Positions 9,680 to 45,790 of a stretch of DNA of 64,000 nt are shown one piece after another. This DNA comes from Protula sp. h YS-2021 (lineage: Eukaryota > Annelida > Polychaeta > Sabellida > Serpulidae). A program made the position numbers and the translations under genes. Below the pieces are notes generated by a model. That model worked only from the letters and a program-made list of their open reading frames with translations, was not told where the DNA came from and did not search any database. Position 1 is the stretch's first letter. Every line of letters begins with the position of its first letter. The DNA is taken from positions 19,340,199 to 19,404,198 of the forward strand of contig OX457031.1 in assembly GCA_949752745.1 (NCBI GenBank). The letters are read 5' to 3'.

Positions 9680-10247
9680 AAATATGCCAAAGAGACATAA
9701 TATTTAGGCAAACCGTCGCACGTCGTGATTGACGTGAGTCGTAATTAAGCGTACTGTCCCAGTGTCTAGAAAGTAAGTCCTCAGCACACATTGGGACGTC
9801 TATCCCACGTCTACCCAGCTACACTTGTTCACTGCGTTTTCTTGACGCGAACAAGACAGACAATGTCATGATGTTTTGTATTAAATATCTTTCCAACTTT
9901 GAGATATCTGATATCCACTTCTGATATAAATTCGTATCCGTGGCTTCTGGTTCGATGGAACGCAGGGATATATCTATGTCGGAAAATGACGTCACGGCTT
10001 ACCTATTTGAAGTTGGCGCGGATGACAAATTCATGGCATTGGTTAACCTACTCCCATTAGCATAAGTAAATTGGTGTGTTACTTTGTGTTTGTTTGTTTG
10101 CATCCATGCGCTTAATCGCTATCACCACAGACACCAATTTAGTTCCAGGTAGTTCATGCTGTAATATTCTGCACAACTCTTAATTATCATTTAACAAATT
10201 ATTCATATTTCAGAGGTGTCCTCTCTTATCCGCGTAAATTCTGTTGT

Positions 10248-10262
10248 TTTTATTTATTTATT
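10248..10262 (-). terminator. Putative polyadenylation signals of the Ig gene
   Basis: On the minus strand overlapping AATAAA motifs (AATAAATAAATAAA) occur about 100 bases downstream of the Ig gene stop codon. The position suits a short 3' UTR. Confidence 0.5.
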
Positions 10263-10363
10263 TTTTTCTGTGGGTTTTTTTTAATGACGTAGGGTTTAAG
10301 AAAAATGGTTAGAGAGAATGTTTGGCATTTCGATCTATTAGATCAACATCGTCGCTTGAAAGA

Positions 10364-10509
10364 CTACCAGAGCACGGGAATCAGGAGCGTTGCTATGGCA
10401 ACGGAAAGACTGGGAAAAGTTACAGATGAAGCTCCCTCGATGTTCTTCCGTTGTGTGGGTGCATCTTCAGGGGATGGGTCCTCCTTGTATGGTACTTCAT
10501 CATTCTTCT
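10364..10509 (-). CDS. Ig gene exon 10: stalk and GPI-anchor signal, stop
   Basis: The acceptor is TATCATTTACAG. The exon encodes EKNDEVPYKEDPSPEDAPTQ, RKNIEGASSV, and the hydrophobic end LSVAIATLLIPVLW followed directly by TAG (10366-10364). Small residues at 392-395, a short spacer and a terminal hydrophobic run with no cytoplasmic tail fit a GPI-attachment signal. A weak donor (TCT|GTAACT) inside the exon is the main alternative, but it would lose this ending. Confidence 0.72.
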
Positions 10510-13500
10510 CTGTAAATGATAATACTATTAATGGTCACAATCTATACATGGTAGCATTGGGTATTCTGACGTACACGAAAAAGTTGGTACTGTGAGTACT
10601 TACTTCACGACCTAGCTCGAAGAGGTGTCAGTGGTACAAAGTACATCCAAGCTTTGAGTGTCACAAAGTCCATGACAGTTTCGAATGTCGTACTGTCGAT
10701 GGGCGTGTCGAATCACAAAATCTGTGAGCGTATCAAATGTCACAAGGTCCGTGATGGTGACGAATGTCACAAAGTCCGTGATATTATCAAATGTCATAAA
10801 GTCCATGAGTGTGTTGAATGTCACAAAGTTCATGCGCATGTCAAATATCAGAAAGCTATGAGCGCGTCAAATGTCACAATGTCCACGACAAGGTCACAAA
10901 GTACATTGTAGTGTCGAATGTCATAAATTATATGGAAATATCGAGTGTTACAAAACGACCGTGCTGAGTATTGTATGTCACCTGACAAGGCACGAAGTGA
11001 CAAGGTGTGTCATATCAAGGTGTGACATGTCAAAGTGTGGCCTGTCAAGGTGTGACATCAAAGTGTGGCATGTCGAGTTATGACATGTCAAGTTGTGACA
11101 TGAAAAGATGAGACATGACAAGGTGTTACATCACGGCATGTCACAACCGCGTTGCCATTCACAAAGTCCGAATTATAAATTAAATGTGTGAAAATGTTGA
11201 ATGCTACAAGGTGTGTTATATGTACAGGACGACGATGAATGCAAAATACCAAGCCCATTGGCATTATATGTCGTTTATCATATATTAAATTATAAGTTAA
11301 ATTCAAATAATTTTAGGTAAAAATAACTAATAATAGAGGTATTAAAAACTATGCATTAATTAAATGCATTTAATAGACATTAATTAAAGAAATTGATTAG
11401 TGCAGAGTTAACACCTGTATTTATTTCACAGCTTTTTTTTTAAATTTGAAGATACGGGTGTAAAATGTAAAATATTCCACAGTGAAATAATCATTTCCAT
11501 TTTCACTTTTAGTTCAGTACACCTTTTAGTTTAGTTAAGTTTTTTGTAGTTTAGCATACGTTTTAGTTTAGTTTAGGTTTTTGTGGTTTAGTATACCTTT
11601 TAGTTTAGTTTAGGTTTTTGTAGTTTAGTATTCCTTTTAGTTTAATTTAGGTTTTTGTAGTTTGGTATACCTTTTAGTTTTACTTTAGGTTTTTGTAGTT
11701 TGGTATACCTTTTTGTTTAGTTTAGATTTTTATAGTTTAGTATACCTTTTAGCAGTATATCCATCTGTTTCGTCTCAATGTTGTTCTCTACTGAAAGCGT
11801 GTACTCGCGGAAGTCCGTATCGTTGACAACCCCGATGTGAAGGCGAACAGTCACTTCACCAGTATCCTCCGTCACCTGTCAGTATAAAAGCTACAGTAGT
11901 CATTTTCTTCAGCACTACCATATCAAGGAATAGTGGTGACAATGGTGGTGGTGGTGGTGCGGTTGCCAAGGTGATGACGATACGATGATGATGATGATGA
12001 TGATGATGATGATCATGATGATGATCATGATGATGATAATGATGACGATAATGATGATAACGATAATAATAATAACAAGAATAATAATAATAATAATAAT
12101 GATGATGATGATGATCATGATGATGATCATGATGATGATCATGTTATGACGTCACTTTTAGTATGCTCGTTCAACTTAAATTTGATATGAATTGTCCAGT
12201 TTCTCAAAAAAAAGTTTACCCCGCATATGTGGTTTAGTGAGGTTGGGGTTTGCTCGAACAACGCCAGAAACTCGCAGTAATGACTTTGGACGTCGTAGTG
12301 TATATTGGGTTGTCCCTCCCCCCTCCCCCAATAACTGCCTTCGTATTTCCAGGGGTAAAGTCAAAACACAAGACAATGATGGGTTGTTGTTACCAATGAG
12401 GATAAGAAGCTTCCTCCAAAAACAAACAAATAAACAAACAAACAAACACGGAACTGGTGCAGAATTCTACAATGTTTCAAACTGATATACGTATTCAGTT
12501 TCTCCCCACAATTTTATATTCTTCGTTTTCATCGCAACGGAAAGAGCCAAGGTGTTACAGTGTTACATGCATAATACTACGGCTGTTATCGTCTTATTTG
12601 ATTATTCGCCACTTCCAGTGACGCCGTTGCTTTTACAGCTTCATGGCTCCTTGTAGACAGTAATGTCAGGAGCCCTGATGACACTGCATTGATTTTTCTT
12701 CTTGAGCTCACTCGCCCGTCCTCAGGCACTTTCTGTATTGATGCAAACACAGAAGCTAATCCTGGGAGGGGAGGGGGAGGGGAGGGGAGGAGAGGGGGGG
12801 GGGGGGCTCCTTATTACAACGGAGCTCCGCTCCATCTTATTGTTGTTGTTCGATGCACAAGTGTAAAAAAAATAGTGCAAAAAGTGAGTTCATATTTTCT
12901 GCAATCATTAAACCTAGGCAGCTCAAATTTGCGGCATACATAGGTTTTGCAATTACGTATTGGCCTGCTAGCCTTTAAGCAAACTTGAAATTAAAAGTGG
13001 GTTGCGTAATTAAATTTTTCACCATTCATTTTTTTTTTCATGTCCTCGAAAGTTGGAGTAGCCTTTTTTAACATGTTAAAATTTTAAGAAATTATATTTA
13101 AAAAAAATAATAACGTTTATCTTGAAAACGGTGCTACGGAGCCCGTTTTGTGACATCGTTTGAAGAGATTTTCTCAGTCCGATTTCTTGTTCTGCTTTCT
13201 TTTTATTTCTTTTTTTTTTCATCGCGGCCAAATGACAATTTCCTTGTTCCCATAGTCAGTTTCCATGGAGGAGAATACGGCTGCAACACTATCGGTAGTT
13301 GACTCCCTAAACTACCTAAAGAGACCATTTCTATTCGTGGTACTTTGTTGCATACTATTAGTTTTCTTGTCAGAGGACAATTAAAAATCCAAAAAGTATG
13401 TACCCCTAATATTTCATACTTTTTTTTATTCAACACTTTACTCCACGCTCGTATCCGCTGCAAAGCCCAAAACCTCCTCACTAACCTAGATAGCTTTAGG

Positions 13501-16500
13501 CGTATGTACTTTATGGGCAGCACCGCTGTTTGCCTGTATTTTTGTTTTTAAAACGAACAATACTTACGAGGGATGTGGTACTGAACTTGTCTCTTCTAGC
13601 TCCCTGCATGACAGTCACAGTCTCGTTGTCAACAGTCCATGACCACTTCGTTAGGTTGACAATGATCGGAGGGTTGGCGCGGATGTGACACTCTAGCTGA
13701 AGGTCCGTTTCTCCAACATGGGATATTATTTCCTCCTCGCAGGTAATAGCTGGTGGGTCTATAAAATAAATAATTCATGACTAAAATAAATGAAAAGCAA
13801 TTTCACGGACTTCTTTCTTGCACCGCCATGAGAAGCGCGAGGGGAAAAAAGAACAGTCTGTTGGGCACCAATGGCTGTGTGTGGCTTGGTCCCAACCATG
13901 TCCGCTGTATTATGGCATAAAGCTAGAGGACAAATGTCCCGTCGGTTCTCATGGTGTTTTCGTACTGATCGCAGTTCTAGAACTCTCGGTTGCGGTTCTG
14001 GAACTCTCGGTTGCACTTCTAGAACTCTTGGTTGCAGTTCTAGAACTCTCGGTTGCAGTCCTAAGACTCTCGGTTGCAGTTATAGAACTCTCGGTTGCAG
14101 TCCTAAGACTCTCGATTGCAGTTCTAGAACTCTTGATTGCAGTTCTAGAACTCTTGATTGCAGTTCTAGAATTCCAACTTCGCTGTAAATTTAGTTGTTT
14201 TGGAAGAGGTTGGAACGGATTTAAGTGATAGTACGGAGACAAGGCAACGCTGGATGTCACCTCTATCCAGGGTATACTTTTAACGTACTTGACACCTTCT
14301 GACATCCCTCGTTTGATGTACACTTTTATTTGCATTCTATTCGTAAGCGTTATGTACTTGTAAATAAGCATGTCGTGAGTGCTACTTGCATATCACTCGA
14401 ATTTCATGGATAAGATCCACTTATTTTTCACTCGGATATCGTGGTTATTCTGGCTACTAACCTTTCACTTGAATTTAAGGGTAAACATCCACTTACATGT
14501 CTCTCTTATGAATCCACGACATAACGTCCGACGACATAACGCCCAACGTTATGTCGTCGGGTGTTATGTCGTCGGGCGCTATGTCGAGACACCCTCTCGA
14601 ATACCATCAGTGACATCTACTCACATATCACGCGGACTGCACGCCTGGCAGTTTCCTTGAAGTCCGTGTCTGGAACTTTAGCAGTGCATCTCAATTTCTG
14701 ACCGTCATACTTTACTTCCGGCCGGAAGTTGTCATTGACCTGTTGGAAAAAATGCTCAAAAATATTGCTGCTCATGAAGCATAAAGCCGAGTACAGCCGA
14801 TTGTTATTCGGTTTCTGAATCAAATCAATAGTGGGTTTGTCCATGAAGATCTTGTTCACAAACTGATCTCGATTTCTGAAGTTTTCATCGAATGTCTCTG
14901 TTCTTGCTCCAAACTGAGTGGGCGTGGTTGCCAGTTAATGGTTTGAGCGGAGTTATACTGATTGTCCCGGTGTAATGAAACGTTTTGACCCCCAAACAAA
15001 TCGACCTCCCGGTCGATTTCCTTTAAAACAAACAGACCCGCCGGTCGATTTGTTTTACGAAAGCCAGCCACAACAAACAGACCTCCCCTATAATAAAATG
15101 ACCCCTTCCAAATAATCGTGTTTAAATATAAAACGGAAGTAAAAAAGGTGCATATGGTTTTTAAATACTATTTTAAGCATTTTCTACCTCTTGTAGAAAA
15201 TTATTATTTTGAGCCTTTGAAATGCCATTATTGAGCTTGGACAGATTTTTTGGTGACTGTATGTTAGTGGTATTGGAAGTGTTTTCGTGTTTGAAAATGT
15301 AGATGTTAGTTGCTAAATAAATCGTTATTCATGGATATAGTTTTTATTTCAATTAAAGGAACTAATAAGCTGACCATGTGTGGAAATAAATAAAGAAATC
15401 AAACAAAAAAATAAGGGGGTTAAAACATTTCAGGGGGGGGGTCTGTTTGTTTTAAAACAAATCGACCGGGGGGCGGGGGTCGATTTATTTTGGGGGTTCT
15501 TACGCCGGGGCTTCTATTTGGTTTCTAAATGAGCGCCTGAAATTTCTCAGTTTCCAAATAGAAGCCCTGGGCTTTTTTTCGGAAACCCCCAGTACCAATG
15601 CCTTTGATACAACGTTCAATAAACGTTGGGAAAGCATCATTGTTTAGACGTTGATTTTAGTCACAACCAAATCACAACTCTATCCGTCGTCTAATCAACG
15701 TCTTTGGTGCAACGTTGAATAGACATCAGACTCAACCATAAATTACCTTCTTGCGTTATCGCTCATCGGAAATAATAACCCTGACAGGTCAGTTCAAAAT
15801 TAGACCAACACGAGGACGCAAAACATGAGGATGTCAAGAGCACCTAAGTTTTTTTCACCTAGTTTTGAGAAACATTCATGAAAACGACTTCATACATATC
15901 CTGTGGACGGATGATCCAAGGATGGTCGTGACCACACTCAGAAGGTGGATATCAGGATGGCGTTTTTAGAATAATATTTTCCCGAAGTTTATATGACGTT
16001 ACTTTCCCGACATCTTCCCAACGCCGAGAGATGTTTCGACTTTCATTTCCAACCTTTACACAACGTTGATTAGACGTCGGATAAGTAACGTCTGTCCAAC
16101 GTCTGAAGGTAGACCTTGTTCCGACTTCGATAAACAACCGAAACCTGACATTGATCCAACGTCGGGTACGACGTTTCAATGTTTACTGCATAACGCATTT
16201 TTAATCAGTGGTTTCCTTAAAAACTCTATTCATTCAGCTCACATGCTCTGTACGAAGCCAAATCCAGCAGGACTAACAGAGATCTGCCAACACTAATAGC
16301 TAAAGACAACTCAGACATAATGAAAAATACCAGTTTTTCCCCCTAATTATGTGTGACTCATGCACGTATTTGATACTACCCTAGTTTACTGAAAAAGAGA
16401 CAATACTAAAAGCCAAGTGCCTGTTTTTGTATTTGGTTTCCCTTTGACGTTGAGGACATTAATGCATCACCCAAGCAGCGCATTATCAGTGCATCGCGAC

Positions 16501-19500
16501 AGGTATAAAGGCAGCATTATATCTTCCTGTTACACGCATTGATGTTGCTGGCTGCAAGCTTGCTTTTAAACATTTAATGCGATTTTTCACTGAAGTGTGA
16601 AACCACACATACAAACACGCACAAAATTGCACTTGGAACCTGACGGGATATTTTTTGATCTCGTCCAGTAAACGCTGTTTTCTTTTCGTGCATCTATCGT
16701 CCGCCTATCCTGCGCCTATTTGAAGACATGACATCGACAGACATAATGCCTATTTGAAGACATGGCATCGACAGACATAATGCCTATTTGAAAACATGAC
16801 ATCGACAGACATAATGCCTACTCGAAGACATGGCATTGACAGACATAATGCCTATTTGAAGACATGGCATCGACAGACATAATGCCTATTCGAAGACATG
16901 ACATTGACAGACATAATGCCTATTTGAAAACATGACATCGACAGACATAATGCCTATTTGAAGACATGGCATCGACAGACATAATGCCTATTTGAAAACA
17001 TGACATCGACAGACATAATGCCTACTCGAAGACATGGCATTGACAGACATAATGCCTATTCGAAGACATGACATTGACAGACATAATGCCTATTTGAAAA
17101 CATGACATCGACAGACATAATGCCTATTTGAAAGCATGACATCGTTTGTCAAGTTGTCGCTGGACTCATTCTCGTTGCGGTCAATCGTCTAACATTCGTC
17201 TTCTTCATGGTATCTAGAATTTGGACCAGATACATTGGGCTAGAAATATTTGGGCCAAATGGGGAAGTGTAACATTCGGGTGACTTCAAGAATTACTCAA
17301 AAGCTTTGATGAATAATGTTGTGTTAATCTTACTTAGTGTGACTGTAGTTTTGGTTTGACCTGAGTGGGTTAACTCAGCCCTTCTGTATCCTACCGTAAA
17401 ACCCGGAGAATGACAGGTTTGTCAACTTATGTTGCAATTAGAACAATGGGCCATTTTTTTAAGGCTACGCATGTTCCCTAGCAACAGGCGTTAGTACGCA
17501 AAGGCTACTCCAGTACGTACGACAGTTGCTGACAGATAACATTTGAGGGATTTCTGATGGTGAGCGATAAAGGGGATGATCTGTATTTTTGCGACAGTGT
17601 TTGGCACGTAATGGCACTGAAAGGATTTCGTTTAGACTTCGTTAAATAAAGGAGATGCTCTTACTCCTTGCTGTCTTCAGTGAATAAACCAACAATAAAA
17701 TAAAAACATCAAAATTGTCAAAAAATCATTGTTCACTGACTGGAGGATTACATCCCAGTTGGACTACGGCCAAGTTAGACTCCGATTTTGCATTTCGGAA
17801 ACCCACTTGGACTACGGCCAAGTTGGACTACGATTTTTCCTTCCCAGTTGGACTATGTCCCACTAGGACTACGAAATTTCAAAATTAAGTGTAACCAGTT
17901 GAGTTATTAAATTCTTACATTGAGAACTATTATTTGCGGATCCACAGGATTCAAATCAAAGATGTTTGTTTGAAGAGCTGTCGTGCAAACAAGTTTCCTT
18001 GAGCAACGCCAGTGAATTTTCTCTTTCGTTGTTCTATTTCTAATGTACCTGTAGTCATTATAGACTAGCAGTTTGCTTCTTTTTCTAACTCCGTTTATAA
18101 CATAAGTCATATCCACATGTAAATATCGAAACAACAATCGGAGAGCTTCGGAAATGGGCTAAGGACATCGGAGAGCTTCGGAAATCTGCTAGGGACATCG
18201 GAGAGCTTCGCGCATGGGGTAAGGACATCAGAGAGCTTCGGAATTTGGCTAAGAATACTGGAGAGCTTCGAGAATAGCCTAAGTAAAAACGCCTTAAATA
18301 AAGACGGTAGAAGCCTTGGTAAGGGAGGACTCATCGTTCCATGGCAGCCTTCCTTTTGTGTCTGAAGGAGAAGCCGACCCCCCAAAACGACCCTGGCTGA
18401 CAGGGAAAACGCAAGGTAATAAACCTCTGGTTGTTCAGACTAATGTCGCACCCCGAATGGAAGACACGGAGGACACGGTGCTAACAGCACCAGGAAACGC
18501 ATAGCTTGTTTTTCGAGGGTCGCAGCCAAGAAGCCCTCCCCAGAGCAGACGACATGGCGGCAGTGGATGTACGGCCGCATTTGCGAGGTGTTTCCAGGTG
18601 CCGGCCAGTCCGAGTCGTCGGAAGTGGTAAGCAAGTACAACCTATACGCGGTGACGTTTGCCGACGTATGCCAGCACTACACAGGCGAGATACAACTAGA
18701 ACTACAGGCAGCGGGTCCACGTCGGCCTCCTGCAGTGGGATGACGAATACATATACTTATCAGGTGTCTACATTTTTGCCGGAAGGCCGGACGGTCAGAC
18801 AAGCCCAAAGGCGCCGCTAAGAGAGACACGGCGGGCAGACCGATATGCCATAATTTCAGTAGTCGCAAGGGCTGCACCGTGATCCGATGTAGATTCGCCT
18901 ACACTTGCAGCACTTGCTCGGTGAAGCACCCTGAATATCTGACCAGAAATACGCCAGCTCTTGCCCACTTGAGCCAAAATTCGGAATTGGGAGTACCTTT
19001 GGGAAAATGATCACGACAAAGCATTCATTTTAGACGGACTTTTAAATGGTTTTAACATTGTAAACTGCTAACATGAACAAAATTCAACCCACTGAGGCAG
19101 CCAATAGCCGCGCCGCGGAGAGCAAATTCCGGGATAAAGTGAAGGCGCAAATTAAGAAAGAACCATTATTTTTCTGATTTCTGCGGTTCTGAAGTCCCAT
19201 CCAGTACTGATCACAGCCTGATGGCAGATCACTCAACAGTTTCGCTTTGCTCGACAAATACACTTTTGTCTCCGTCGACGTAGCAATAGCCTTGATGGGA
19301 CAGAGATTGTGTGTAGGGGTGAATCTGAAATCTGCTTATCGCCACGTCAGCCTCAGTTCGTTCTTGCAGCAATTTAAGGGTCTGCAGTGGAAGCTCGAGG
19401 GTGATTCGCACCACATATATATGTACAACACACGCCTCTCGTTGGGATTTTCCACCGGATAACCCAAAGCGTTGGTCTGATGCTCCAAACTCAGGGATTA

Positions 19501-22500
19501 ATGCCATCATCTGATACCTCGATGACCTCTTTATAACTGCAGAAACGTACGAAGAAAGCCATGAGATATCTCACTCACTTATTGGTTTCTTTTGGATTCT
19601 CTATCTGATGGAAAAATACATTTCCTCTACCCATTTCACCTTCCTGGCATTTCAAATAAACACACTGGAGTGCACCCTGTCAATCCCACAGAGTGGGCTT
19701 TAGGAGACTCTGGACTTAGTCGCTGGATCACAGCATATCCACAGCAACATGTGCCGAAGCCTCCCAATGATCGGCAGCCTTTGCAGCTCCGTGTCTGTGC
19801 AACTTCGCGAGAGAAAGCCGTGCTCGAACCTCCTCTGCACACCGTTACGAACGCAAGCCCAGAAGCTGCTGGCGCTGTACTCATAACCCAGAGATCGTCA
19901 ATCGACTAGCTATACTGCAAATGGCCAGTGGATATGCGCTGCCCCGCTCAGGAGCACACCAATATGAGCAAGGTAACGAAAATAATGTTATCTATAAGTA
20001 AAGGGTATTATCGTGGCTAACTTGAGGAGGAGGAGGAGGAGGAGGAGGAGGAGGAGGAAGACACCCCGTCATTGGTAGCCATAGCAACCAAAAAGTTTCA
20101 AAGACGACATAAGGTCTGAAATGTGAATCTCCACTGAAAATTTTAACCTTAGGAAGGACAAGTATCAAGCGATGAAAGCCAAATGGTCGTCAATAAACGT
20201 TCACCAATGAGCATCAGGTGATGTCTGATGTCTTTTTAAATTCAATATTTCAATACAGCAACAACATGAATATTGCACAGATATATGCAATGTTGCTTTA
20301 AAAAAATTTTATTTTGAAATGTAAGTCGTTTGGACGCGCTTTCCACAGGCAAATTTTTCATTGTAGGAGGGGGAGTAGGGGGTGGGGGCTGGGCAGACGA
20401 CTTGAATTAAAAAGTAAATGTTGGGGGCGGAAGATGGGGGCTCGACAGGATTTAAGATTTCGTTTTCTAATTGTAGCTATTTTCAATTCACAATGTCATG
20501 CAGTTAATTTCTCTGACAATGAAGACTACCACACACTTGCATATATCACCTCCTTAGGACAGGCATTTAAATATTAAACAGCTCGCAAACAGAAACAATC
20601 ACATTTGTTGCGCTTCGGTCTTATTGGCTTTATTTGGGAGAAAACAACACTCTCGTCATTACCGTGTACAAATTCGAGTTACGGTGTTTTTTTTCTGAAA
20701 ATTGTGTACGATGTCCAGAACAGGTGACTGTCTGAATTACCCAAGTACTTATTATACAGAAACGAATAGGAAATGAAGGAACTGATATTTTTAAAATTAG
20801 GGATTTGCTCATATTATAAGGCTTATCAGCGACAGATTTTACTGTACTTAAATATGCAAACTTCTGGTCCAGGTATGGTTTGACAATATACTGGCCTGTG
20901 GTCATTACAAAACGTGATCTTATTCAGTAGAAAGTAGTGATGGGACGAATTACTTACTAATCGATTTTTTTTCAATGCATTTAATAGAAACTTTATGCCT
21001 GGCAAACATTTGTTGTTTGCTCTTCCTTTATAACCCACGATTCCCACGATTTTGATTAATCTATTGCGATTTTATCACCAGCAAAACGGACAGTAACTAA
21101 TTTGACCGTTACAGAGGATGTAGTTTTGGGTAATTTGAGATTTTACAGTAAACTTACCAAGGTAATTTCATAGCGTATCTCATCCAGACCCGGTGCATCG
21201 AGTGTTAGTGTCGGTATCTCTTGCACGTCTAGTGCAAACTGTGACGTGATGTCGTCTGAGCCTAGCTGTATCGTCACTTCCGGTTTGGGGTTACCTTGCA
21301 AACAAAAGCGCTATGTTGATTCAATTTCCAAGCACATTGTTGATTTTAATACGAATCGCAAGGAAAATGGTAATTGGATCTATGCCAATTTAGATGAACA
21401 CAAATAATTTGCAATTTGGATAATATTTTCTTCGTTTACCTCCAGTTGACAATTGCAAAGTAAATGTTTGAATTGTGGTGTATATTTTACACACATCTTA
21501 CATCAAGGTGTAAAATCTTTAAAAAATATTAGATAAAAACTGCTGTTTCTAGTGTAAAACAGGACCTCTTAAAGCAGTCATGACGATCAGTGGATTTACC
21601 TCCTTTTACAGAACAGTTTACAGAATAAGCTTCGCTCCTTTCCTGCTGAAAAGTGAACACTTGTTCCCTTTTCTCTCCCTCGATCTCTTCGCTGTCGGAA
21701 TATAGTGATATTTGCTCTATGTTCTCTGAAATATACACTCTGCTATGTTAATTGTTTATCTTCAATCAGTTTAAAATGTAGTCCCATGATATAGTTAATA
21801 CTTTATTGGATGTGTAACGTGGAATTTCCAGTCACACAAAATTAATAAATCTCTCTCTCTTCATTTTTATTGAAAAGCAAAAAAGGAAAGATCATTATTA
21901 TTTATAAAATGCTTTATAATTTACAGTTTGCAAATGTAGTTATGTGAAAAAGCATCGGGGTGATCGAACGGCAGCTGCAAATTATTCGTATGAACAAAAC
22001 GCCATTTTCATCTCCTATTAAAATGGGTGTTTGTCTTGTAGCTTTATAGTTGGATCGAACCGCTTCCCACAACCACCAGCCCCCTTCCCATCTCCTACCA
22101 CTTCCCAAGCTCCACGAAAAGTGAACATCGAATCCCAATACGGGTAAACATAGGAAAACCAATGACGTACTTCGAGATAACCAAAAAAAAATTTTGCTGC
22201 AGTGATATTAATTTTGCTTATTGTTAGAAATAACATTTCAACTGTGCTATGGGCATAAACAATTGGGATGATACCTTTCAATGCATATTTTTGTACAGCT
22301 ATACAACTATAACAAAGCAAAACTACAGCTTATACAAAACGGAAATCCACTTTGTTAGGGGATAAATATGGGTAATTGGTTATGTCTGACAGACACTACA
22401 TAGAAGTCATCTGCTACTATGTACTGAGGGGATACTAACCCTGTACTGGATTGTGTACTTTATACGCACCTACAACTACGACAGTATGTAGCACCGGTGC

Positions 22501-25500
22501 TATTTCCTCGATGTCATACAGAGTACATTTATATGTACCACTGTCGCCAAGCCTCACATCTGCAAAACGAAACAAATACACATTGTTTGTCAATAACCGT
22601 ATTTCATTGACCAGGCGTTCAACACTGAGGATGACTACAAAATGTTTGCATGCAAAAATTGTTGTGTACAAACAAGGGGAAATTGGTGTATGTGAAGAAA
22701 AAAACAGTCTTTGATTCATAATTTTGTCCCCTTGTCATCAGGGAAGCTACTATGCGCTACAATAGTATCCAATGTCAACCATACTCTTAGAAATAATAAC
22801 ATAGCACAAACCATTATATCACAGCTAAAATTGTTTACAGTCATGAGTGTCCCTAAAACAAACAACTTTATCGTTAACTGAAATAAGCATAAATATGTCT
22901 TCAAGTGTTGTTTGAACATTGCTAAATTTGGTTGAGTTCAAATGCGAGGAGGCAGAGACACAGGTACATGGATTCGGTCGATCGTAGATTCCGCTGGGGG
23001 CAATACAACACAAGCTTATCACAAATCTAGCCCGGTGCTATATCATGTAGAGCTTTCCAAACTATACACAAAACTTTAAACTTTGTCCTGTCTTCGACCA
23101 TAAGCCAGTGTAATTCTGAAAGTGCCTCTGAAATACTACAGTCCCACTTCCTCTGCAACACAAGGCGGGCTGCAATGTTCATAACGCACTGCAAGTGTTG
23201 AATCAACCACTTACGTAGGGAAACTAGCACAGAATTACAAAAATCAGGTCTAGAGATCACGTAGATGAACAAGGGACTTGGTTGCATCAATGGTAAGATA
23301 GCGACGCATTTGCGTATCCAGTTGATGTAATACATACATGTTTTACACACATTGTTCACATGGACGTCCATGGACAATTAATCATCAACAGTCACTCCAA
23401 GGCTTTTGATAGACTTTGAGGATCTCATAACACTGTGACCCAAGTCCAGTTCAGATACTTCTACTTTTTACCTGTTTCGGCCACTACAAATAATAATAAA
23501 TTCCGATTTATCCGGGTTCAGTTTTAATTTGTTGGCTGTAGTCCACTTCTGTATTGACACAATACTTTTACTCAATTCCGAGATAGTTTCACACTGACTA
23601 TCAGTGACTCTCAGTGACAGATACTTAGAAGGCCCAGTGTCATCTGCATAACAGTGAAACAAGAGTGTGAGCAGCTGAAGCAAGTTGCCCAAAGGCTGAG
23701 CATAACCAGAATGCAGCCTTGGTCCTAATTTGGATCCTTGCGGCAGCGAACAGTCCAAATGAAGTCTTGCCTACTGACACACAAACGCTTCTGTCGCTTA
23801 CGTAGGATCGAAACCAGTCACTGGCGCAGACACCAAAAGTATAGCTCAAACGTTTGAGGAGCACCACTTGGTCCACGGTATCAAAAGCCGCTGACATGTC
23901 GCGCATCGCAACGGCAAAGGCGGAATTCGGATTGTCAAGCCCAAACAAAATATCATCAAGCACTTTGATAAGGGCAGTTTCTGAGCTGTGATATTGTCTA
24001 TAAGCAGACAGATACGGTTGGTTGAGGCCATTGGTAGCTACGTGAGTCGATAACTGTTTTCTAGCTGCTTCCTCAGTAACTTTACTTAGGAACGAAAGAT
24101 TTGATACATGCCGATAGTTACATAAATGCGTGTCCAAATTTGGTTTCTTCAATAAGGGTCGGATGGTAGCGAGTTTATGTTCCCTCGGAAACTGTCCAGT
24201 CATCAATGACAAATTCGCGATTTTTCTTATAACAGGTAAAAGGTCATCAATACACTCACTGAGCAATAAAGCAGGAAGAGGATCTAACTCACACGATTTG
24301 CACTTGGAGCATGTGATACTTCGAACTCAGATAATGATCTAAACTCAGATAAAGTTTGTCCATGAAAAGCAACATCGTGCTCCATCGCAGACTCGACATC
24401 ATTGTCAAAATTTTGACGTATCTTGTTGACTTTGTTTTGAAAGAACGCATTGAAATCATCAGCAAGCTCTTTTGCACTTTCGTGATCTGGTAAAGGGTAA
24501 CTGACTTTTTTGTGTGTTATGGCATTCATATAACTAAACAGTGATTTAGAATCCCGCGAGTTCTCTTCGATTACGCCGCACAGTTGAGATGTTTTGAATC
24601 TTCATATAGTTGAACAAATGCATCACGCTTTTCAAAATACTTTTTTGAATTTTCGTTTGACTGTTTCTCACGGAAGCGACGTTCTACTTGCCTTTTAATT
24701 CGCACGGCTTCCAGAACTTCTGCTGTTTCCCAAGGATCACTCTTTTTGATTGAAGCTACCCGAGTTAAAACCGGCGCATGTTTATCCAACAAAGCTCGTA
24801 ATTCTGAATCGTAAATTTTAGTGAGCTCCTGAAGATCCATAACGTCTTGTTTAAAGTGATAGTACATAAAGTATAATTCATAGCTTCCACATCTTTGAGA
24901 TCCATCATCAAAAGCCTTTTTGTTCGTTTTGGTAAGACGCAAGCGAGGATCATGTTGATCTATATATAACCGGGAGTGTGTAATAGTAACACACCTTTAT
25001 GTGGCCTATTTATTTATTATAGTGGGAGACGATTAGACACGTTTCATGAAAGCAATATTTGGGACAAGATTCCCATCTTGGATCTTACGATTGCTGGAAG
25101 CAACAACCAAGCTAGCAAGACGACTTTAATGAAATTGTGTGCATACACACATAATGAAGCACCTTTAACACAATTTTAATCTGGGCCACTCTGCTTCTTT
25201 GCAGTCTATTTCTGGTCATTATCTAAACTGTAACCCAGTCAAGGTAAGATCTTTCGCCAAGTCTCACGATTGCATCATCAGTTTGCCTTCTAGCTGCTCC
25301 AATGAAAGTGTAAAGAAATCCATAAGAGCCTTTCATTTTGTTAGAGCAGTTTCTTTTGTTCACTTATTCATTCATTCGCATAGCAACTTTCTCCACCTGC
25401 TTCTATCGACCACTGCTTTAAAATATTAAATTAGAATTAGATTAAGAATGACTTACATCAAACTGAGAAATAGTAAGGGTTACTGCCATGTAGGATGTCA

Positions 25501-25574
25501 GCCTATAACCTAATGTTATATTAACTCTATTTGTTATCACAAAAGGACTTATTATTAAAATTATAATTCTAATG

Positions 25575-25654
<80 letters not shown>

Positions 25655-28600
25655 TATTATTATTATTATTATTATCTCTACTTTTAGATTGGTTTTCCTT
25701 CCAGGAAATACTTTTGACGCACTAAAAGCAAAGCTTTTCACAGCGATCCGAAACGCCCCATCCTGACACCCATCCAACAACCAGTCTGCTTCAGTACTAG
25801 TAACAGGGGGGCATTCACTTCAAGCGTGGTTCTTCAAACACACGCCATTCTGTTTGCTTCGCAAAGAACAACCGATGATGAGACAGACACAAAACTCTCG
25901 ATGCCTAGTCATTTACCACAAAGGAGTTTGCTGGGGATACTCTGCTGAGACAGACCAGTTCGGCAATCCTGGTCCAGGTGTCGACACCGGTAAATGTGAA
26001 TACAGAGGACCGACTCTAATGAAGCAGTGACACAAAAAAAAAACAAGGAAAACTACGCATACGGCTCTTTTCAAGACTATTGCTGAACTGGGTACCCCGG
26101 AAAGGGAAGACCGGTCAACCTTAAGCAAGGCATGGGCAGAATGATAATCGGATTCCACGAAATTACTACCCGAGTCAGACGTTAAGCTCCACTCCGCCAG
26201 TGAACAGATTTTCGCTACGCATAAACCATCGGCGTCGATTTCCTCCGTAACAACGAGAGAGCTACGCAACCCCAGACAGGTAGCACTGCTGTCACTTCTA
26301 ACGATATTGTTGGCATTATTGTCTTCGCAATCACAGGTACAGCGTCAGTTAAGATAATGGCAAGAGATGTCCCACGGGTTGGAGGCGAAACTGAAATCCA
26401 AGGAGGAGGACAAACCGGCCGCCATGGCCCTCAACTCCACACGCCCCTCCATCGCTCGAGCCGTGTCGGGTGCTACAGACTGGACTGTGGTAGTTAGTGA
26501 AAAGGAGTCACTGGATCAATTGCCCGCATTGAACCTCAGTGATGACGACGAACTCAACCAAACTCCCGCCTCTCCCCTGGCGTTTATGTAAGGAGGCCGA
26601 AATGCAAAAGCCATCGTTGGAACTAGCCTCACGTCAGGACATCGAGCTATGCGAAGAGGTAGAACGTGGATGGAGAATCGCCTCGGCCATGTCACCTGCG
26701 GTAATCCTTTTGTGGATAGGGATGATCCTGGAATAAGGATGACGTCACAAACCATACTTCCCCAGCAAGATTCGTTTTTCAGGTTATCAGCTACTGAAAG
26801 TATAGAGGATGCAGTGACTGTGCGCTCGGGCGAATTTAAAAAGAAGGATGCTTCCGAAGGCCGTATGTCATCATACTTCCGTCCATCGAAGCACTGTTTC
26901 GTTCGCCCCGGACCTCATCGCTCATCCGACCACCAGATACCGCTGGAGGCGTTGAAATTTGAATGCCTGGCGCTCCCGACCTCGGATGTTGTTGAGCGTA
27001 TGACCTTAATGATGACACCTATGGTCTATCTACAGAGAGACGCTTTCCTACAGATCATAAATCTCAATCAAATACATGTCGACCAAGGATTGTGTTACAT
27101 TCATTCCAACAGTTATGATCACTCACCTAATACACTTGCTACCCGGATATTCTGTATGAAGAAAGGATAATTACTTCGCTGTTGCTTTTGTGGGATCTTC
27201 TCGGCATAAGCCTGAGATAACAATACTTTAACTAGACCGAATTTTGCTACACGTAGCGAAATGGCACCCACTTGCAATGGTACAATCTATCTGGTCAAAG
27301 ACACATTTTTCAGTGTTTCGACATAATTATCAGCTTCCGAATTATTATTTTAAACGAGTACAGCGAAGTAAATATAATGTAATCTCTTTTGGGTAGTTAG
27401 TTAGTTGTTTGGTTGGTTTAACGACACCGTCAACCTATTGCAGGTCATATTGTGTCATTCCTGGTAACTTTGTCGCATTTATACTTTACTGATTAAAAGT
27501 TAGTATAAGATAAAATCTTAAATACACTAAAACGTTAGAATTTATGGTAATCTATACATACGAATACAGCTTAATTTCTTAAAAAAATTCTAAGACCTTG
27601 TTAGAATTTACTTTTTCAAAGGGCTCTCTCATAGAGTCAACTCTATAATAACGGGGATGAATGTAATTGAAGTCTATGCAATCTATCAAGATGTGTTTCA
27701 CTGTATACAGTTCCTGACAACTTGTACATTCGGGTTGTGGTTCACCTCTTAAGAAGTGCTTGTGGGTAGTATAAAAATGCCATATTCTTAATCTGTGTAC
27801 TAAATATCGTCGCGGAGACCATTTAGGGAGGGCAATTTGCGCCCTACCACAGGATTAATTTGGTATAGCTTATTGTTGGTTTGTTCATCCCAATGTTGTT
27901 GCCATAGATTTTTGACATATCTAGAAATGTGGCGCTTAAAATCTGATGGCGGTATAAGGAAATCTTAGCAACCTTGGTCTTCTTTGGCGCTTTTGTCCGC
28001 TGCCTTGTTGCCGGGGATTTCAACGTGGCTCGGTACCCAGCAAAATATTATCTCTTTGCCAGCTTTTACCACTTCGTCCTGGTTTTCTATCAAGTCCAGA
28101 ATTAGTGGGTTGGATACCTGGTGGTTTCTAGCACTGACATGGAGTAAACACATAATATGAATTTTTTGTAACGACTAATATTGACAATTTGTCACTTCTG
28201 CAGAGAAAATAGAAGACCCATCAGGGAGCCTGGTCTTTTGCGTACAAATAATCAAATCAAGTTTTCTAACCATTTTCGAAATAATGGTTTAAAAATAAAT
28301 TATAATAATAATAAACTTCCGGGTTTTGACATTGACCATGACGGAGGAGGTCAACGTCACCGAGGTACCTCCTATATAGCATCTTTTAAGCGCGAAGGGT
28401 CGAGGTCAAGGCCAACGAGGTACTTCTTATGAATCGTCCTTTAGGCCGAAAGGGTCGAAAAAATCTCAGAATCATCCTGTCTCTAACCGTTTTCGAGATA
28501 ATGGTCAAATTCCGATTTTTGGCCTTGACCATGACGGAGGAGGTATCTCTCCCGTAACGTCTTTTAGGCTCGAAGGGTCGAGATTAAGCAAAAATCGTCC

Positions 28601-29994
28601 TATCTCTAACCATTTTGGAGATAATGGTCAACTTACGGTTTTTGACCTGGACCATGACGAAGGAGGTCAAGGTCACCGAGGTTCCTTTTACATAAGGTCT
28701 TTTGGGACAAAGGGTCGAAAATAAGCTCAAAATGGCTCTATCTCTAACCGTTTTCGAGATAATGTCAACTTCGGTTTTTGACCTTGACCATGACGGAGGT
28801 CAAGGTCACCGAAGTACCTCTTATATAATGTCTTTTGGGCCCAAAGGGTCGAAAATAAGCTCAAAGTCACTCTATCTGTAATCGTTTACGAGATAATGAT
28901 CAACTTCCGGATTTAGAACTTGACCATGACGAAGGAGGTCAAGGTCACCGAGGTACCTGTTACGCAACGTCTTTTAGGACGAAAGAATCGAAAATAATCT
29001 CAAAATCGTCCTATCTCTAACCGTTTTCGAGATAATGGTCAAATTTTGGCTTTGACAATGACGGAAGAGGTTAAGGTCACCGAGGTTTCTCTCACGGAAG
29101 GTCTTTTAGGCTCGAAGGGTCGAAATTAAGCTCAAAATCGTCCTATCTCTAACCGTTTTCGAGATAATGGTCAACTTCCGGTTTTTGACCTTGACCATGA
29201 CGGAGGAGTTTAAGGTCATCGAGATACCTCTTATTTAACGTCTTTTAGGCCCAAAGGGTCGAAAATAAGCGCAGAATCGCTCTTTCTCTAACCGTTTACG
29301 AGATAGTGGTCAACTTCTGGTTTTTGATCTTGACCATGAGGGAGGAGGTCAAGGTCACCGAGGTACATCTCATATGGCGTCTTTAGGCCCAAAGGGTCGA
29401 AACTAATATCAAAATAGCTCTATCTCATACGTTTTCGAGATAATTGACATTTTTGCTCTAGGGGATTACGATATACAAAGGTCACATGACCTCAATTTGA
29501 CATTGACCTTGAAGGTCAAGGTCAAAACAATTTGCGGATTTCACGACAACTCATTACCCTATATGTCTCTACCGAATGCCGTCTTTCTACTACAAACCCT
29601 GTAGGAGGAGTTTTCTGAAAACCACTTTGAGGTCAAAAATATTTTGAATGTCAACATTTTATTTTTGACGTACCTTTTATGGTAAATCTGAACTCTCCAC
29701 CCGTTCGTGACACAAAATACCTCTCGCTCTCCTTAAATGGTGTTTGAAAGGCAACTGCAACACAAAGATGTGTTTCACATTAGAACTAAAATAATTAAAA
29801 CGATATCACGTCCGTTATTATTGCTAGTTATTATTAATAATTTTATTCTTATTATGAACTATTAATTATTCCTACTATTAGTATTATTATGGTATTAATT
29901 ACTACATATTTTAAATATTTTATTTTTAATAATTATTACCATTATTAATTATAATTTTATTTAGTATTTTTAATAATACTGAATATGGTTTATT

Positions 29995-30063
<69 letters not shown>

Positions 30064-33000
30064 CTTATTATTATTAGTCTACTGAGATCTGTGCGAGCCC
30101 CACAGATTATATATATCGTGGCTGTTACTAACTTACATCCTGAGGCTACTTGCACTGTTGTATGATCTCTCAATTCTTTGGAAAATATTATCTGATTGGC
30201 CCATGTGTAGTTTTCAGCATGACAAGTCAACACGAGCTCTGATTGGCCAATGGGCACTTCCTGGTGTGAGTCTTTCGTCAGGAAATACGATGCCGCTGGT
30301 GTGCATTCTGTAAGCAGTAACATCGATTACGGCTATAACTGAAAGCCGGCACATGTCGTTCACAGTAAAACTTTACCTCATTTTTGTCTCACTCGTTGAC
30401 CAGTGTGTTTTATAAGTGTGAACTGGAGATTGAAGTAGGAATTCCACCTTAAGGGTGGGGAGGGGCGGCGGGAGAAGGAGGGAAACTTGGTGTCACGCGT
30501 GTTACCACGCGTGTGCAAAAAATACAGAGAGAGGGGGTAATTTTAAGGAGAGACGCGGTCCTCGCGGAGAGCAAATTTCGTCAAAAAGGGGGAGGGGGAA
30601 TTTTCGTTCAGTACTCCGCGTTTCTCATGAAAAGGGTTCTTTTGGAACTGCATTCCACGTTTTGGTTGAGAATGGGGTGTTTTTTTTCAAGTGTACCACT
30701 CCGCGTTGACTCTCATGGTTCCCAGTCAGTGCGCGAGTTCTCGCCCAACCCCCCTCCCCCCGCCCTGGGCCGTGTAAACTTTGATGGAGGTCCACACCCA
30801 TATATAGTGGTAAGGGACATTGATGGCGTATGAAAACAAACGAACAGAGCTACAACAGAACCCCGCGATAGGACCACCCCAAAATTAAGACCAACCCGGA
30901 AATAAAACTACTTTTCATCAGTACCGCGCCAATTCACTGCCATTAAAGAGAATAACAAAGACGGACCCCTTTGTACCAGTCCCAAGTTTAGTCCTATATC
31001 GGGAATTCTGGAGTACGTCACAGTACGATGAGTGTATTTTTCATATAGTGTTTCTTTGGTATCTCCATATCTCGACCTAATACCTCAATTGTCTGCGCAA
31101 AATGCAAAACCAGTAAATTTTGGCAAATTGTGATCGATCAAATGCAGTAACATAAGCCAGAAGTCACCACAAGTAAAATAGAGTTTAGTTTCAAGTGCGA
31201 GAAAAACCCGACACAAAGCAGAAGCTGACCTGTCGCTACCGAGCATCCGGACAACCCTTGTCCCGACCCTAGAGTGAAGCAGAAGGTTCCATCGTTAAGA
31301 CGGGATATTCGTTTAACCGATGGATTGTCGGCGAACAGAAAAAAGTATCAAGATGTAGTCCCGATCAGAGAAAAAATATCATGACATCGTCCTGGACAGA
31401 GTAAAATAGCAAGATATCATCCCGAAGAGAAAAAAAAACAGTAAGATGTCACTCGGAATATGCTCCCATTCCGACCCCTACTCGCGCTCGATAAGCCAAT
31501 TCGCACTTTGGGATTTTTCCGGTGGAGGTGTTGTTTCGACTGAAAGTGATAAGGGAAAAACATCAAAATTCAAATTTTCTTTCAACATGCACACTTTCAA
31601 ATTTATAAAGCCATCATATGATCTTTTAAAAAACTATTTTAACATATTATTCAGTCCCTTTAATAACCAACATGTGAATAAATTTCTGGCAAAATGGAAT
31701 TTTCTTGATTTTTGCCGTTTTTTTCCTATCATTTCTTTATATCCTTATCCCACCTGAATTCAGCCCGAACGCAAAACTTTTCGGCAAAAGTCAAAAGTGC
31801 GAATTGGCTTATTGGTGAGTACAGTCCTCTCTGACAAAAAGACAGTTACGCCTGGAATACCCAGAAAACTAACCCAGTTCATAGTGCAATTTTAGGTTAA
31901 TGGCTGTTAGCAAATTATCACAGTTGTTGTAGTACTTTTTTGGGGATCACTTGACACAAAACAGTGAGACTGAGTGTCACACAACAATGCCATGATCACG
32001 ACTTTGTGAGTGGGGAGGGTTGGGTAGGGTGGGGGTGGGGGGGGGAGTGCAAGGTCGGAATGGTTGCTGTTTGAAGTTTGTCCATTGCAGCTGGATGTAT
32101 ATCAGGGGAAAAACTTCTAAGCAATTCCTGACCGAAACGTTAAATATTTGTCAGGCACTAATACGGGCCTTTTAAATAAGAAAATTGATTCTTAAAAAAT
32201 AAATAATAAATAAATATAGGAACAGCAAAACCGGTGGGTATGATTTGACAAACTGAGTTGCATTAATTCAGTTAAAAATAGACCGTTTCGCTACCGAGTA
32301 CCGAGAATTATGTTTGGGGGCCTCAAAAAATACGATTCTGAACTTCTTAAAATTCAGATCGAATCATGAACGAATAGGTCAAGGTCACCGCGGTACCTTT
32401 TTCATGGGTCAAAAATAAGGTCAAAATCTCTAACAGTTTGGAGATAATGGTCAACTTCCGGGTTTCGAACTTGATCATGACCGAGGAGGTCAAGGTGTTC
32501 TTTTTCGAGAAAATGGTCAACTCCCGGTTTTTTGACACTGAGCACGATCGTCGAGGTCCAAGGACACCGTGTTACGTCCTTACGTAACTCTTACGTACCT
32601 CTTTCGGGTCCAAATGGTCGAAATAAGCTCAAATTCGCTCTATCTCTAACGTTTTCGAGATAATGGTCAATTTCCGGTTTTTGAATTTGACCATGGCCGA
32701 GGAGGGCAAGGTCAGCGAGGTACTCTTACATATCGTCTTTTAGGCCCAAAGGGTGGAAATGGGCTCAAAACGCTCTTTCTCGAACCGTTTTCGAGAAAAT
32801 GGCCCACTTCCGGTTTTTGACTTTGACCATGGCCGGGGAGGTCAAGGTCACCGAAGTACCGCTTACATATCGTCGTTTAGGCCCAAAGGGCCGAAAATAA
32901 CCTCAAAATCCCTCTATCTCTAACTGTTCTCGAGATAATGGTCAACCTCCGATTTTTTACTTTGACCATGCCCGAAAAGGTCAAGGTCACCGAGGTACCT

Positions 33001-34545: not shown

Positions 34546-34660
<115 letters not shown>

Positions 34661-35833
34661 ACATATGAACAATGGCTGTAAGGTCACAGCAAGAATCTAA
34701 CAGATGGGTTGTGGTTCCCACTCAAGCCAGAGGGGAAGCGAAAAGCAAAAACATGAAATATTTAAAGTGATTTCTTTAAATCGCACATAAATTACTCAAA
34801 TGTAACCTCCTATATATTTATCGCTCCGTAGCGAGAGAAGGGCAACCTAAAACTAGCAACTGTGAAGTGAAATTCAGATTGTTGCGTGCTCAATTTGCAA
34901 GAAATAGAGTCATTTGAAACAAAGTGGAAAGCACCGGAGAGGCCATGCCTGCGCTTCCGTAAAATGACTTTTTTCCACATCACTCTCGCAATTACATGTT
35001 GGCTTCTATTAGTCACGCTGATTTGAGTTTCGGAGAGAAATATACTGCTTTCCACCATCCCCTCCCCCACCCCCTCCCCATCCCTTTCAAAATATGTGCT
35101 GCATATTTCATTTTTCATTTTTTAATTCCCTGGGACTGAGCAACTGGTGTTTATTTCTGCTTCTATAACTATTTTTTGACATATGTGAACAAAATTTTCC
35201 TTTGAAAATTAAAATCGAAAGTTGAATCTGGAACAGGGAAAATGGATAGGCTGGTGCCAGAAAAAAGTAAAACCAGTTAATGGACCATGCGGTTATCGAA
35301 TTAAAAAAACCAGTCTTGAACTAATAATGACTAGTAAAACAGTGTTGGTTTTCTCTTATGTCTGTTTCAGAGATATGGCAGATCTTGCAGTGCAGAAAAT
35401 TATGAATAATCCACAATGCTTGAGCCGGGGCAATTCAGACAGGCACAAGCTTCTAAGCGCAGGATTGCGGTTTCTTCAATATTGTATGACGGCAAGGGCT
35501 TGGTACAAGTAAATTTGCATTGATTTTGCCACTAATTTGCACCACCAAAGGTTTCCAATATTATCCATGATGCCTCGCTTGGTTTTTTCCCCAACTTCGG
35601 ATTCCTGGGAAATCTATTCTCGCGTACTTTCTTAGCTGGAAGCCAGAACAACTCAATCCGCGATCACTATTTCACTTGCCTCCCATCCACAGCAGTGGCT
35701 CCTATACCATGTATAATAGTTAGCAGGGTTTGTTTTTATCCAATAATCTCAAACAGCGAAGATTTTGCGAATCAGGATACGCAATTATTTTCTTTTTAAA
35801 AGTTGGGGGGGGGGGCACGATTCATAAATTGTT

Positions 35834-35950
<117 letters not shown>

Positions 35951-41629: not shown

Positions 41630-42655
41630 TTATTCCCACTTGCAAACTGTTTGCAAATGGGTATAAGTTTGTAGTTTTTCTCGAAATTTCTGTCCTTTTT
41701 TTCCCTTTTTTTTCTTTTTTTTCCGTCAAGGAGGTTTCCAGAAAACTCCTCCTAGGCTATTTGACGTAGGACGATGAAATTTGACATAGTGATAGAGGGT
41801 GACGAGATGTCGTCAAATCCACAATATTTTTTGACCTTGACCTTCAAGATCAAGGTCAAATTGAGGTCAAAGTTTTTCTGACCTCAAAGTGGTTTCTAGA
41901 AAACTCCTCCTACAGGGTTTGTCGTAAAAAGACGGCATTTGGCCGAGGTATAGAAGGTAATGAGTTGTCGTCAAATCCGTAAAATTTTTTGACCTTGAAC
42001 CTCAGAGGTCAAGGTCAAATTGAGGTCAAAATATTTTTGGAAACACCTATTTATCACGAAAAGTAGCCATTTTCGACCCTTTGGGCCTAAACAACGTTAC
42101 ATAAGAGGTACTTCGGTGACCTTAACCTTCTGGGTCACGGTCAAGGTCAAAAACCGGAAGTTGACTATTATCTCGAAAACGGTTAGAGATAGAGTGATTT
42201 TAAGCTCATTTTCGACCCTTTGGGCCTAAACAACGTTACATAAGACGTACCTCGGTGACCTTGACCTTGTGGGTCACGGTCAAGGTCAAAAAAAGGAAGT
42301 TGACTATTATCTCGGAAACGGTTAGAGATAGAGCGGTTTTGAGCTCATTTTCGACCCTTTGGGCCAAAAAGACGTTATATAAGAGTTACCTCGGTGATGT
42401 TGACCTCCTCCATCGTAGTCAAGGTCAAAAACTGTAAGTTGACCAGTATCTCAAAAACGGGAAAACTGAATTTGATTTATTTGTGCCCAAATGAGGTTAC
42501 ATTATATTCACTTCAATGGTCTCGTTCAAGATAATAATCCGGAAGCTGACAATTATGTCGAAACACTGAAAAATGTGTCTTTGACCAAATATGTTGTGTC
42601 TCTGCCCTTGCAAGTGGGTGCTATTTCGCTACGTATAGCAAAATTCGGTCTAGTT
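41630..42655 (-). mobile_element. Composite AGGTCA-rich repeat, copy 3 (inverted)
   Basis: On the minus strand this copy starts AACTAGACCGAATTTTGCTA at 42655 and passes through AAGACACATTTTTCAGTGTT. It then carries about three ~135-bp units and a tail with two AGGAGGAGTTTTCT blocks and TTTGACCTTGACC runs, and ends near TTGCAAACTGTTTGCAA (41640-41656), an inverted motif. It is the most complete uninterrupted copy. Confidence 0.75.
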
Positions 42656-45185: not shown

Positions 45186-45790
45186 AACTAGACCGTTTTC
45201 GCTACCGAGTGGCGAAAAGTACACCTGGGGCCACAAAAAGTATGATTCTTAACTCTTAAAATTCAGATCGAATTGACCATGAGCGAGAAGGTCAAGTCAC
45301 CAAGGGATCTCTTACGTATCGTCTTTTGGGCCCAATGGGTCGAAAATATGCTCAAAATCGCCCTAACCCTTTTCCAGATAATGGTCAGCTTAAGGTTTTG
45401 ACCTTGGCTATGACTGAGGAGGTCAAGTTCACAGTGGAACCTCTTACATATCGTCTTTCAGGCCCAAAGGGTTGAAAATAAGCTCAAAATAGCTAACCGT
45501 TTTCGAGATAATTGTCACCTTCTGGATTTTTACATTGACCATGACCGAGGAGACCAAAGTCACCACTGTACCTCTTACATAACGTCTTTTAAGCAAAAAG
45601 GGTCGAAGATAAGCTCAGAATCGCTCTCTCTTTAACTGTTTTCAAGATAATGGTCAACTTTCGGTTTTGGCCTTGACCATGAGGAGGTCAAGGTCAAGGT
45701 CACCAAGCTTTCTTTTACATATTGTCTTTTAGGCCCAAACCAACTCAATATCGCTCTATCTGTAACTGTTTACTTTGAGAATTGCCTACT
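45186..45790 (+). mobile_element. Composite AGGTCA-rich repeat, copy 4
   Basis: The left end ACTAGACCGTTTTCGCTACC is followed by GGGGCCACAAAAAGTATGAT, AAAATTCAGATCGAATTGAC and about four array units. The right end is missing. A small further trace, TACACTTGGGGCCACAAAAA, lies at about 47450-47470. Confidence 0.75.

What the first reader, a model, noticed from the sequence alone, without database searches (positions are those of the whole stretch)
11509..11875. Minisatellite made of copies of the gene's own 5' splice site
The exon 9 donor (CTAAAAG|GTATACTAAAC, minus strand) is the first of about seven 37-bp copies. At least four intronic units keep a usable GT in the same context, so the intron begins with a ladder of decoy donors. 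Reading past the true donor adds GILNYKNLN and a stop. Use of any decoy or intron retention would therefore give a protein without the GPI signal, that is, a possible secreted form. Copy number could vary between individuals.
Basis: partly seen in the sequence, partly recalled or inferred. Interest (0 to 1): 0.75.

Follow-up and report, generated by a model that had tools for sequence, protein, structure and literature searches.

The report
Short repeat array beginning at splice site
An animal immunoglobulin-type gene has a splice site whose sequence has been copied about seven times in a row into the following intron; this looks like ordinary repeat expansion, a similar case is known in a human gene, and there is no evidence here that the extra copies are used.

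Summary
On the minus strand, seven 37-38 nt copies (11752-11510) begin in the last 7 nt of an exon (11875-11746), so the exon's own 5' splice site (CTAAAAG|GTATAC, intron from 11745) lies in copy 1. Five of six intronic copies keep GT; three have the same nine-base donor as the real one. Read-through gives GILNYKNLN and a stop (11719-11717) before every decoy, so decoy use or intron retention would lose the last exon, which carries a GPI-signal-like tail. The interpretation, a decoy ladder giving a secreted form, is possible but has little behind it. The decoys' donor positions are no better kept than the rest of the unit (3 of 45 against 8 of 140 changes). Higher-scoring GT sites lie elsewhere in the same intron. 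In published human minigenes with identical donors under exon definition, the upstream donor was used exclusively. A minisatellite that supplies several donors is already known in human IFI6 (6-16). Most likely this is neutral expansion of a splice-site segment. No transcripts, relatives or other individuals could be examined; the own-genome search did not complete.

The parts
11746..11875 (-). Penultimate exon of my model (130 nt), second half of an Ig domain; its last 7 nt (CTAAAAG) are the start of copy 1
   Evidence: Frame-keeping exon model; I-set match ends at its penultimate whole codon
11740..11748 (-). Real 5' splice site AAG|GTATAC, intron begins at 11745
   Evidence: by matrix score the weakest of the 7 donors of my model, by U1 duplex energy ordinary
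11510..11752 (-). 37-bp minisatellite, seven copies, the last one partial
   Evidence: TRF; alignment of copies
11717..11719 (-). In-frame stop met when the real donor is read through (after GILNYKNLN)
   Evidence: ORF listing
11703..11711 (-). Decoy donor, copy 2, AAG|GTATAC
11665..11673 (-). Decoy donor, copy 3, AAG|GTATAC
11628..11636 (-). Copy 4, GT replaced by GA (AAG|GAATAC)
11591..11599 (-). Decoy donor, copy 5, AAG|GTATAC
11554..11562 (-). Variant decoy, copy 6, AAC|GTATGC
11517..11525 (-). Variant decoy, copy 7, AAG|GTGTAC
11420..11425 (-). AATAAA in the intron, possible intronic poly(A) signal (about one expected by chance in so A+T-rich an intron, my estimate)
10364..10509 (-). Last coding exon: acidic stalk and C-terminal hydrophobic tail without cytoplasmic part, GPI-signal-like; AATAAA boxes follow, beginning at 10262, 10258 and 10254
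   Evidence: GPI reading is inference
13568..13758 (-). Preceding exon, first half of the same Ig domain

Best explanation
A tandem duplication took in the last 7 nt of the exon and about 30 nt of the intron, including the 5' splice site, and slippage or unequal exchange then expanded it to about seven 37-bp copies. Splicing most likely goes on from the first, exon-proximal donor, so the membrane-anchored protein is still made. The extra copies are neutral passengers that at most leak a small amount of truncated message. Shown: the array, the shared 7 nt, the reading frames, the position of the stop. Inferred: the order of events, that the first donor dominates, and neutrality.
For: The array crosses the junction by exactly 7 nt, and copy 1 is a normal member of the set (34 of 37 positions the same as copies 4 and 5). 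The other six exon ends of my gene model match the unit's end by 0-2 nt only. The Ig domain match runs to the end of the exon, so the exon tail looks like old coding sequence, not captured repeat. Donor positions change about as fast as the rest (3 of 45 against 8 of 140 in the five full intronic copies), and one of six intronic copies lacks GT. Minisatellites are common here: seven arrays with period 10 or more and TRF score 100 or more, overlapping rows merged, lie within 10364-30307. Two identical donors in human minigenes with 365-nt flanking introns: upstream one used exclusively (PMC9225289).
Against: The donor is weak by matrix score (3.71 against 6.30-8.31 for the other six), which would leave room for regulated use or skipping; by U1 duplex energy it is not weak (-5.7 against -4.9 to -8.6 kcal/mol). 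In the same paper, before filtering for equal strength, about 60% of human alternative 5' site events favoured the downstream site, in all four intron classes to varying degrees, and with weakened identical donors the larger minigene exons were mostly skipped. The conservation test has five full intronic copies only. One of seven arrays touches an exon edge in 5.3% of random placements, a donor edge in 2.7%, so coincidence without seeding is not excluded. No RNA, orthologue or second individual was available.
Confidence: 0.72

Rival explanations
1. The copies act as a ladder of competing donors or U1 traps that lowers splicing of the last intron and so yields a secreted form ending in GILNYKNLN; copy number would tune the ratio.
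For: Three intronic copies have the identical nine-base donor and five of six keep GT. The stop precedes every decoy. Copies 2 and 3 would leave the stop only 8 and 46 nt from the junction, likely to escape junction-dependent decay if the mammalian 50-nt rule (recalled) holds. [quoted passage not shown]
Against: No donor-specific conservation; published exon-definition data with equal donors favour the first donor; higher-scoring GT sites elsewhere in the intron; no transcripts available.
Confidence: 0.1
2. The secreted form, if any, arises by intron retention or intronic poly(A) use (AATAAA at 11425-11420) because the donor is weak; the repeat copies are irrelevant.
For: AATAAA beginning at 11425 and ATTAAA beginning at 11646 and 11374 in the intron; the donor has the lowest matrix score in the gene model.
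Against: About one AATAAA is expected by chance in so A+T-rich an intron (my estimate); U1 duplex energy of the donor is ordinary; no 3' end data.
Confidence: 0.08
3. Coincidence or donor capture: a minisatellite that arose in the intron came to abut the exon, and the donor is now supplied by its first copy.
For: Minisatellites are common here, and an array touches an exon edge in 5.3% of 200,000 random placements. CTAAAAG occurs at 19 of 1129 AAG sites of the minus strand, array copies included.
Against: The exon tail completes the Ig domain, and the 7-nt match is far longer than at the other six exon ends of the model.
Confidence: 0.1

Closest known systems
[quoted passage not shown] only its title seen, in reference lists; paper not held)
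   Same: A minisatellite whose units carry 5' splice sites, so that several donors follow one another (title and PMC4526556 passage)
   Different: In IFI6 two downstream repeat units are reported to be used as donors, giving three mRNA species that encode different isoforms (PMC4526556). Here use is unknown, and any decoy comes after an in-frame stop.
Intron gain by tandem duplication of an AGGT-containing or boundary-crossing segment (potato RdRp case, PMC4974935, abstract read)
   Same: Tandem duplication that spans an exon-intron boundary and copies splice signals; five of the seven copies here have AGGT
   Different: No new intron is apparent here; the copies lie inside one intron and have no pyrimidine tract before their AG (direct reading)
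IgSF adhesion proteins with anchored and secreted isoforms from the 3' end of the gene (NCAM, Aplysia apCAM; recalled, from no call)
   Same: Ig-domain protein with a GPI-like last exon and a stop just after the Ig domain if the last intron is not spliced
   Different: No secreted isoform shown; no homologue was found at E <= 0.001

Membership tests
Donor-providing minisatellite (IFI6 type) | Tandem units that each contain a GT donor in the register of a real exon's 5' splice site | tested here: met
   copy 1 is the exon's donor in the frame model; five of six intronic copies keep GT, one does not
Donor-providing minisatellite (IFI6 type) | More than one unit used as donor in transcripts | not testable with these tools
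   No RNA data available for the unnamed organism
Donor-providing minisatellite (IFI6 type) | Length polymorphism between individuals (recalled as usual for minisatellites) | not testable with these tools
   One sequence only; the search of the own genome did not complete
Intron gain by tandem duplication | A new intron bounded by duplicated AG|GT segments | tested here: not met
   In the frame model the intron runs to an acceptor at 10510 (tttacag) that is not a repeat unit
Immunoglobulin superfamily protein | Ig domain profile matches above cut-off | tested here: met
   On the joined exons Ig_3 39.1 bits (cut-off 30), Ig_2 29.5 (27), I-set 26.1 (23.7); the last Ig domain alone stays below (Ig_3 22.4, I-set 21.3)
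GPI-anchored protein | C-terminal signal: small-residue site, spacer, hydrophobic end without cytoplasmic tail | tested here: inconclusive
   Last exon ends GASSVTFPSLSVAIATLLIPVLW-stop; read by eye, no predictor run

The most novel reading that the evidence does not exclude
A splice-site-derived minisatellite serves as a copy-number-tuned switch between an anchored and a secreted immunoglobulin-type protein: identical donors beyond an early stop divert part of the message, so individuals with different repeat numbers make different amounts of secreted form. A physical twist is that GUAUAC is self-complementary, so copies could also hide one another, and the real donor, by pairing.
Probability: 0.06. 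Interest if true: 0.65.

Novelty: new member of a known kind. Interest (0 to 1): 0.27.

Why it matters
If the copies were used, this would be a natural test of how the spliceosome chooses among identical donors, and a length-dependent control of protein anchoring. As it stands it is a clean example of a minisatellite probably born from a splice site, which shows how repeats can copy splicing signals without evident effect.

Tried and rejected
Homologues: a search with the joined 368-aa protein gave 1864 word-sharing candidates and none at E <= 0.001, so the junction could not be checked against relatives; weak PDB matches (9 with E up to 1, best E 0.087, Dpr-interacting protein alpha) are not evidence. 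Dispersed copies: outside the array only a 15-nt and a 22-nt match, E 0.031 and 0.40, in this window; the rest of the genome could not be searched. Known RNA family at 9800-12300: none at gathering threshold. Secondary structure: the fold of 11500-11790 is not special (z -0.87, 38 of 200 shuffles as good), so donor-donor pairing stays an idea. Binding sites of STAR proteins (HOW, QKI; motif recalled): ACTAA occurs 13 times in the array, but ACTAA followed by C or T 0 times; not pursued. The promoter/terminator scan uses bacterial consensus sites and says nothing here. My first boundaries were off by up to 11 nt for three of the four exons tried and were corrected. In the conservation count I left out copy 1 (real donor), the partial copy 7 and the extra base of copy 2. 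The donor weight matrix and the U1 tail were recalled, human-like, and not calibrated on this organism; the matrix makes the donor weak, the U1 energy does not.

Papers: PMC9225289 abstract and part 1 of Results; PMC4974935 abstract; PMC4526556, PMC2572611, PMC2915984 and PMC8724738 passages only; Turri 1995 only its title in reference lists. Eight paper searches were answered; three of them listed nothing. In the listings shown I saw no invertebrate IgSF case, which is no proof that none is in print.

Full report
What is there. The window holds, on the minus strand, an immunoglobulin-superfamily gene. I recovered eight exons (30307-30137, 22559-22470, 21725-21600, 21294-21158, 14739-14625, 13758-13568, 11875-11746, 10509-10364); joined, they stay open from the first codon read to the final stop, and the joined protein matches Ig_3, Ig_2 and I-set above Pfam's cut-offs. 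An exon is probably missing between the first two, because the first Ig domain seems to lack its middle (inference), and the start of the gene was not sought, so 'exon 9' was not confirmed. The last exon ends in a hydrophobic tail with no cytoplasmic part, which reads like a GPI signal (direct reading, no predictor).

The array. TRF reports 11510-11752, period 37, 6.5 copies, 88% matches. In donor register the copies have their G of GT at 11745, 11708, 11670, (11633, GA), 11596, 11559 and 11522. Copies 1, 2, 3 and 5 share AAG|GTATAC, copy 7 has AAG|GTGTAC, copy 6 AAC|GTATGC. The exon's last 7 nt, CTAAAAG, belong to copy 1; further upstream the exon and the unit do not agree. On the minus strand of the window CTAAAAG|GT occurs four times, all in this array, among 63 AAGGT sites.

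Is the splice site real, and did it come first? Only the donor at 11745 can join the end of this Ig domain to the last exon: the in-frame stop follows at 11719-11717, and the last exon is open in just the phase this donor gives. The I-set match ends one residue before the exon's last whole codon, so the exon tail is what completes the domain. This makes it more likely that the splice site seeded the array than that the array supplied the splice site, but no orthologue was at hand. By random placement one of seven arrays touches an exon edge by 1-10 nt in 5.3% of 200,000 trials, at a donor edge in 2.7%, so coincidence is not excluded.

What would the copies do? Any decoy, or retention, keeps the stop and loses the last exon. 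Decoys 2 and 3 would put the stop 8 and 46 nt before the junction; decoys 5, 6 and 7, 120, 157 and 194 nt. If the mammalian 50-nt rule (recalled) holds, the first two could give protein and the other three would be degraded. Against a role: the nine donor positions changed in 3 of 45 cells and the other 28 in 8 of 140 in the five full intronic copies (Fisher p 0.73). Among 66 GT sites scored in the last intron (the real donor included) the two best are not in the array (10603 and 10981, scores 7.55 and 7.54), and 370 of 3735 GT sites of the minus strand score at least as high as the real donor. The flanking introns are 1,692 and 1,236 nt (from the coordinates). In human data with near-equal donors and long introns the upstream donor was preferred, and minigenes with identical donors and 365-nt flanking introns used it exclusively (PMC9225289). 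The same paper also reports the other side: without the filter for equal strength about 60% of events favoured the downstream donor, and when both identical donors were weakened, the larger exons were mostly skipped while the smaller kept the upstream preference. The rule is from human data and may not carry over.

Donor strength is two-sided: by the recalled matrix the donor is the weakest of the seven of my model (3.71 against 6.30-8.31), by U1 duplex energy it is ordinary (-5.7 within -4.9 to -8.6 kcal/mol).

What is known. [quoted passage not shown] the paper itself is not held. Tandem duplication across an exon-intron boundary is also known from potato (PMC4974935 abstract). So the kind is known; this is one more example in structure, with function untested.

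Verdict. The proposed decoy ladder and secreted form are a fair hypothesis with little behind them; neutral expansion of a splice-site segment is the better reading.

Noticed in passing
34565-35614 and 35855-36904: Two direct copies 1,290 bp apart, 100% identical over 1,050 bp, with long CT runs at 34547-34657 and 35835-35947; a very recent duplication or an assembly artefact.
   Followed up: partly
11740-11745 and other copies: The donor hexamer GTATAC is self-complementary; copies 2 and 3 (GGUAUACC) pair in the predicted fold, though the whole fold is no better than shuffles.
   Followed up: partly
23643-24326 (-): Reverse transcriptase fragment (RVT_1, 25.4 bits, below the cut-off of 29.6) inside an intron of the Ig-type gene model.
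   Followed up: no
about 56670-57637 (-): TRPM-type channel exons at higher coordinates than the Ig-type gene (TRPM2-like domain, 24.1 bits, cut-off 27; PDB match 6co7, E 4.1e-05).
   Followed up: partly
28402-29444, 32584-33067, 42068-42460, 45272-45739: Several arrays of a 131-139 bp unit (or multiples) that look related by eye and are rich in AAGGTCA-like half sites.
   Followed up: no
10659-11131: Two further minisatellites (27 bp at 10659-10885, 15 bp at 11001-11131, both with TGTGACA-like words) in the same last intron.
   Followed up: no
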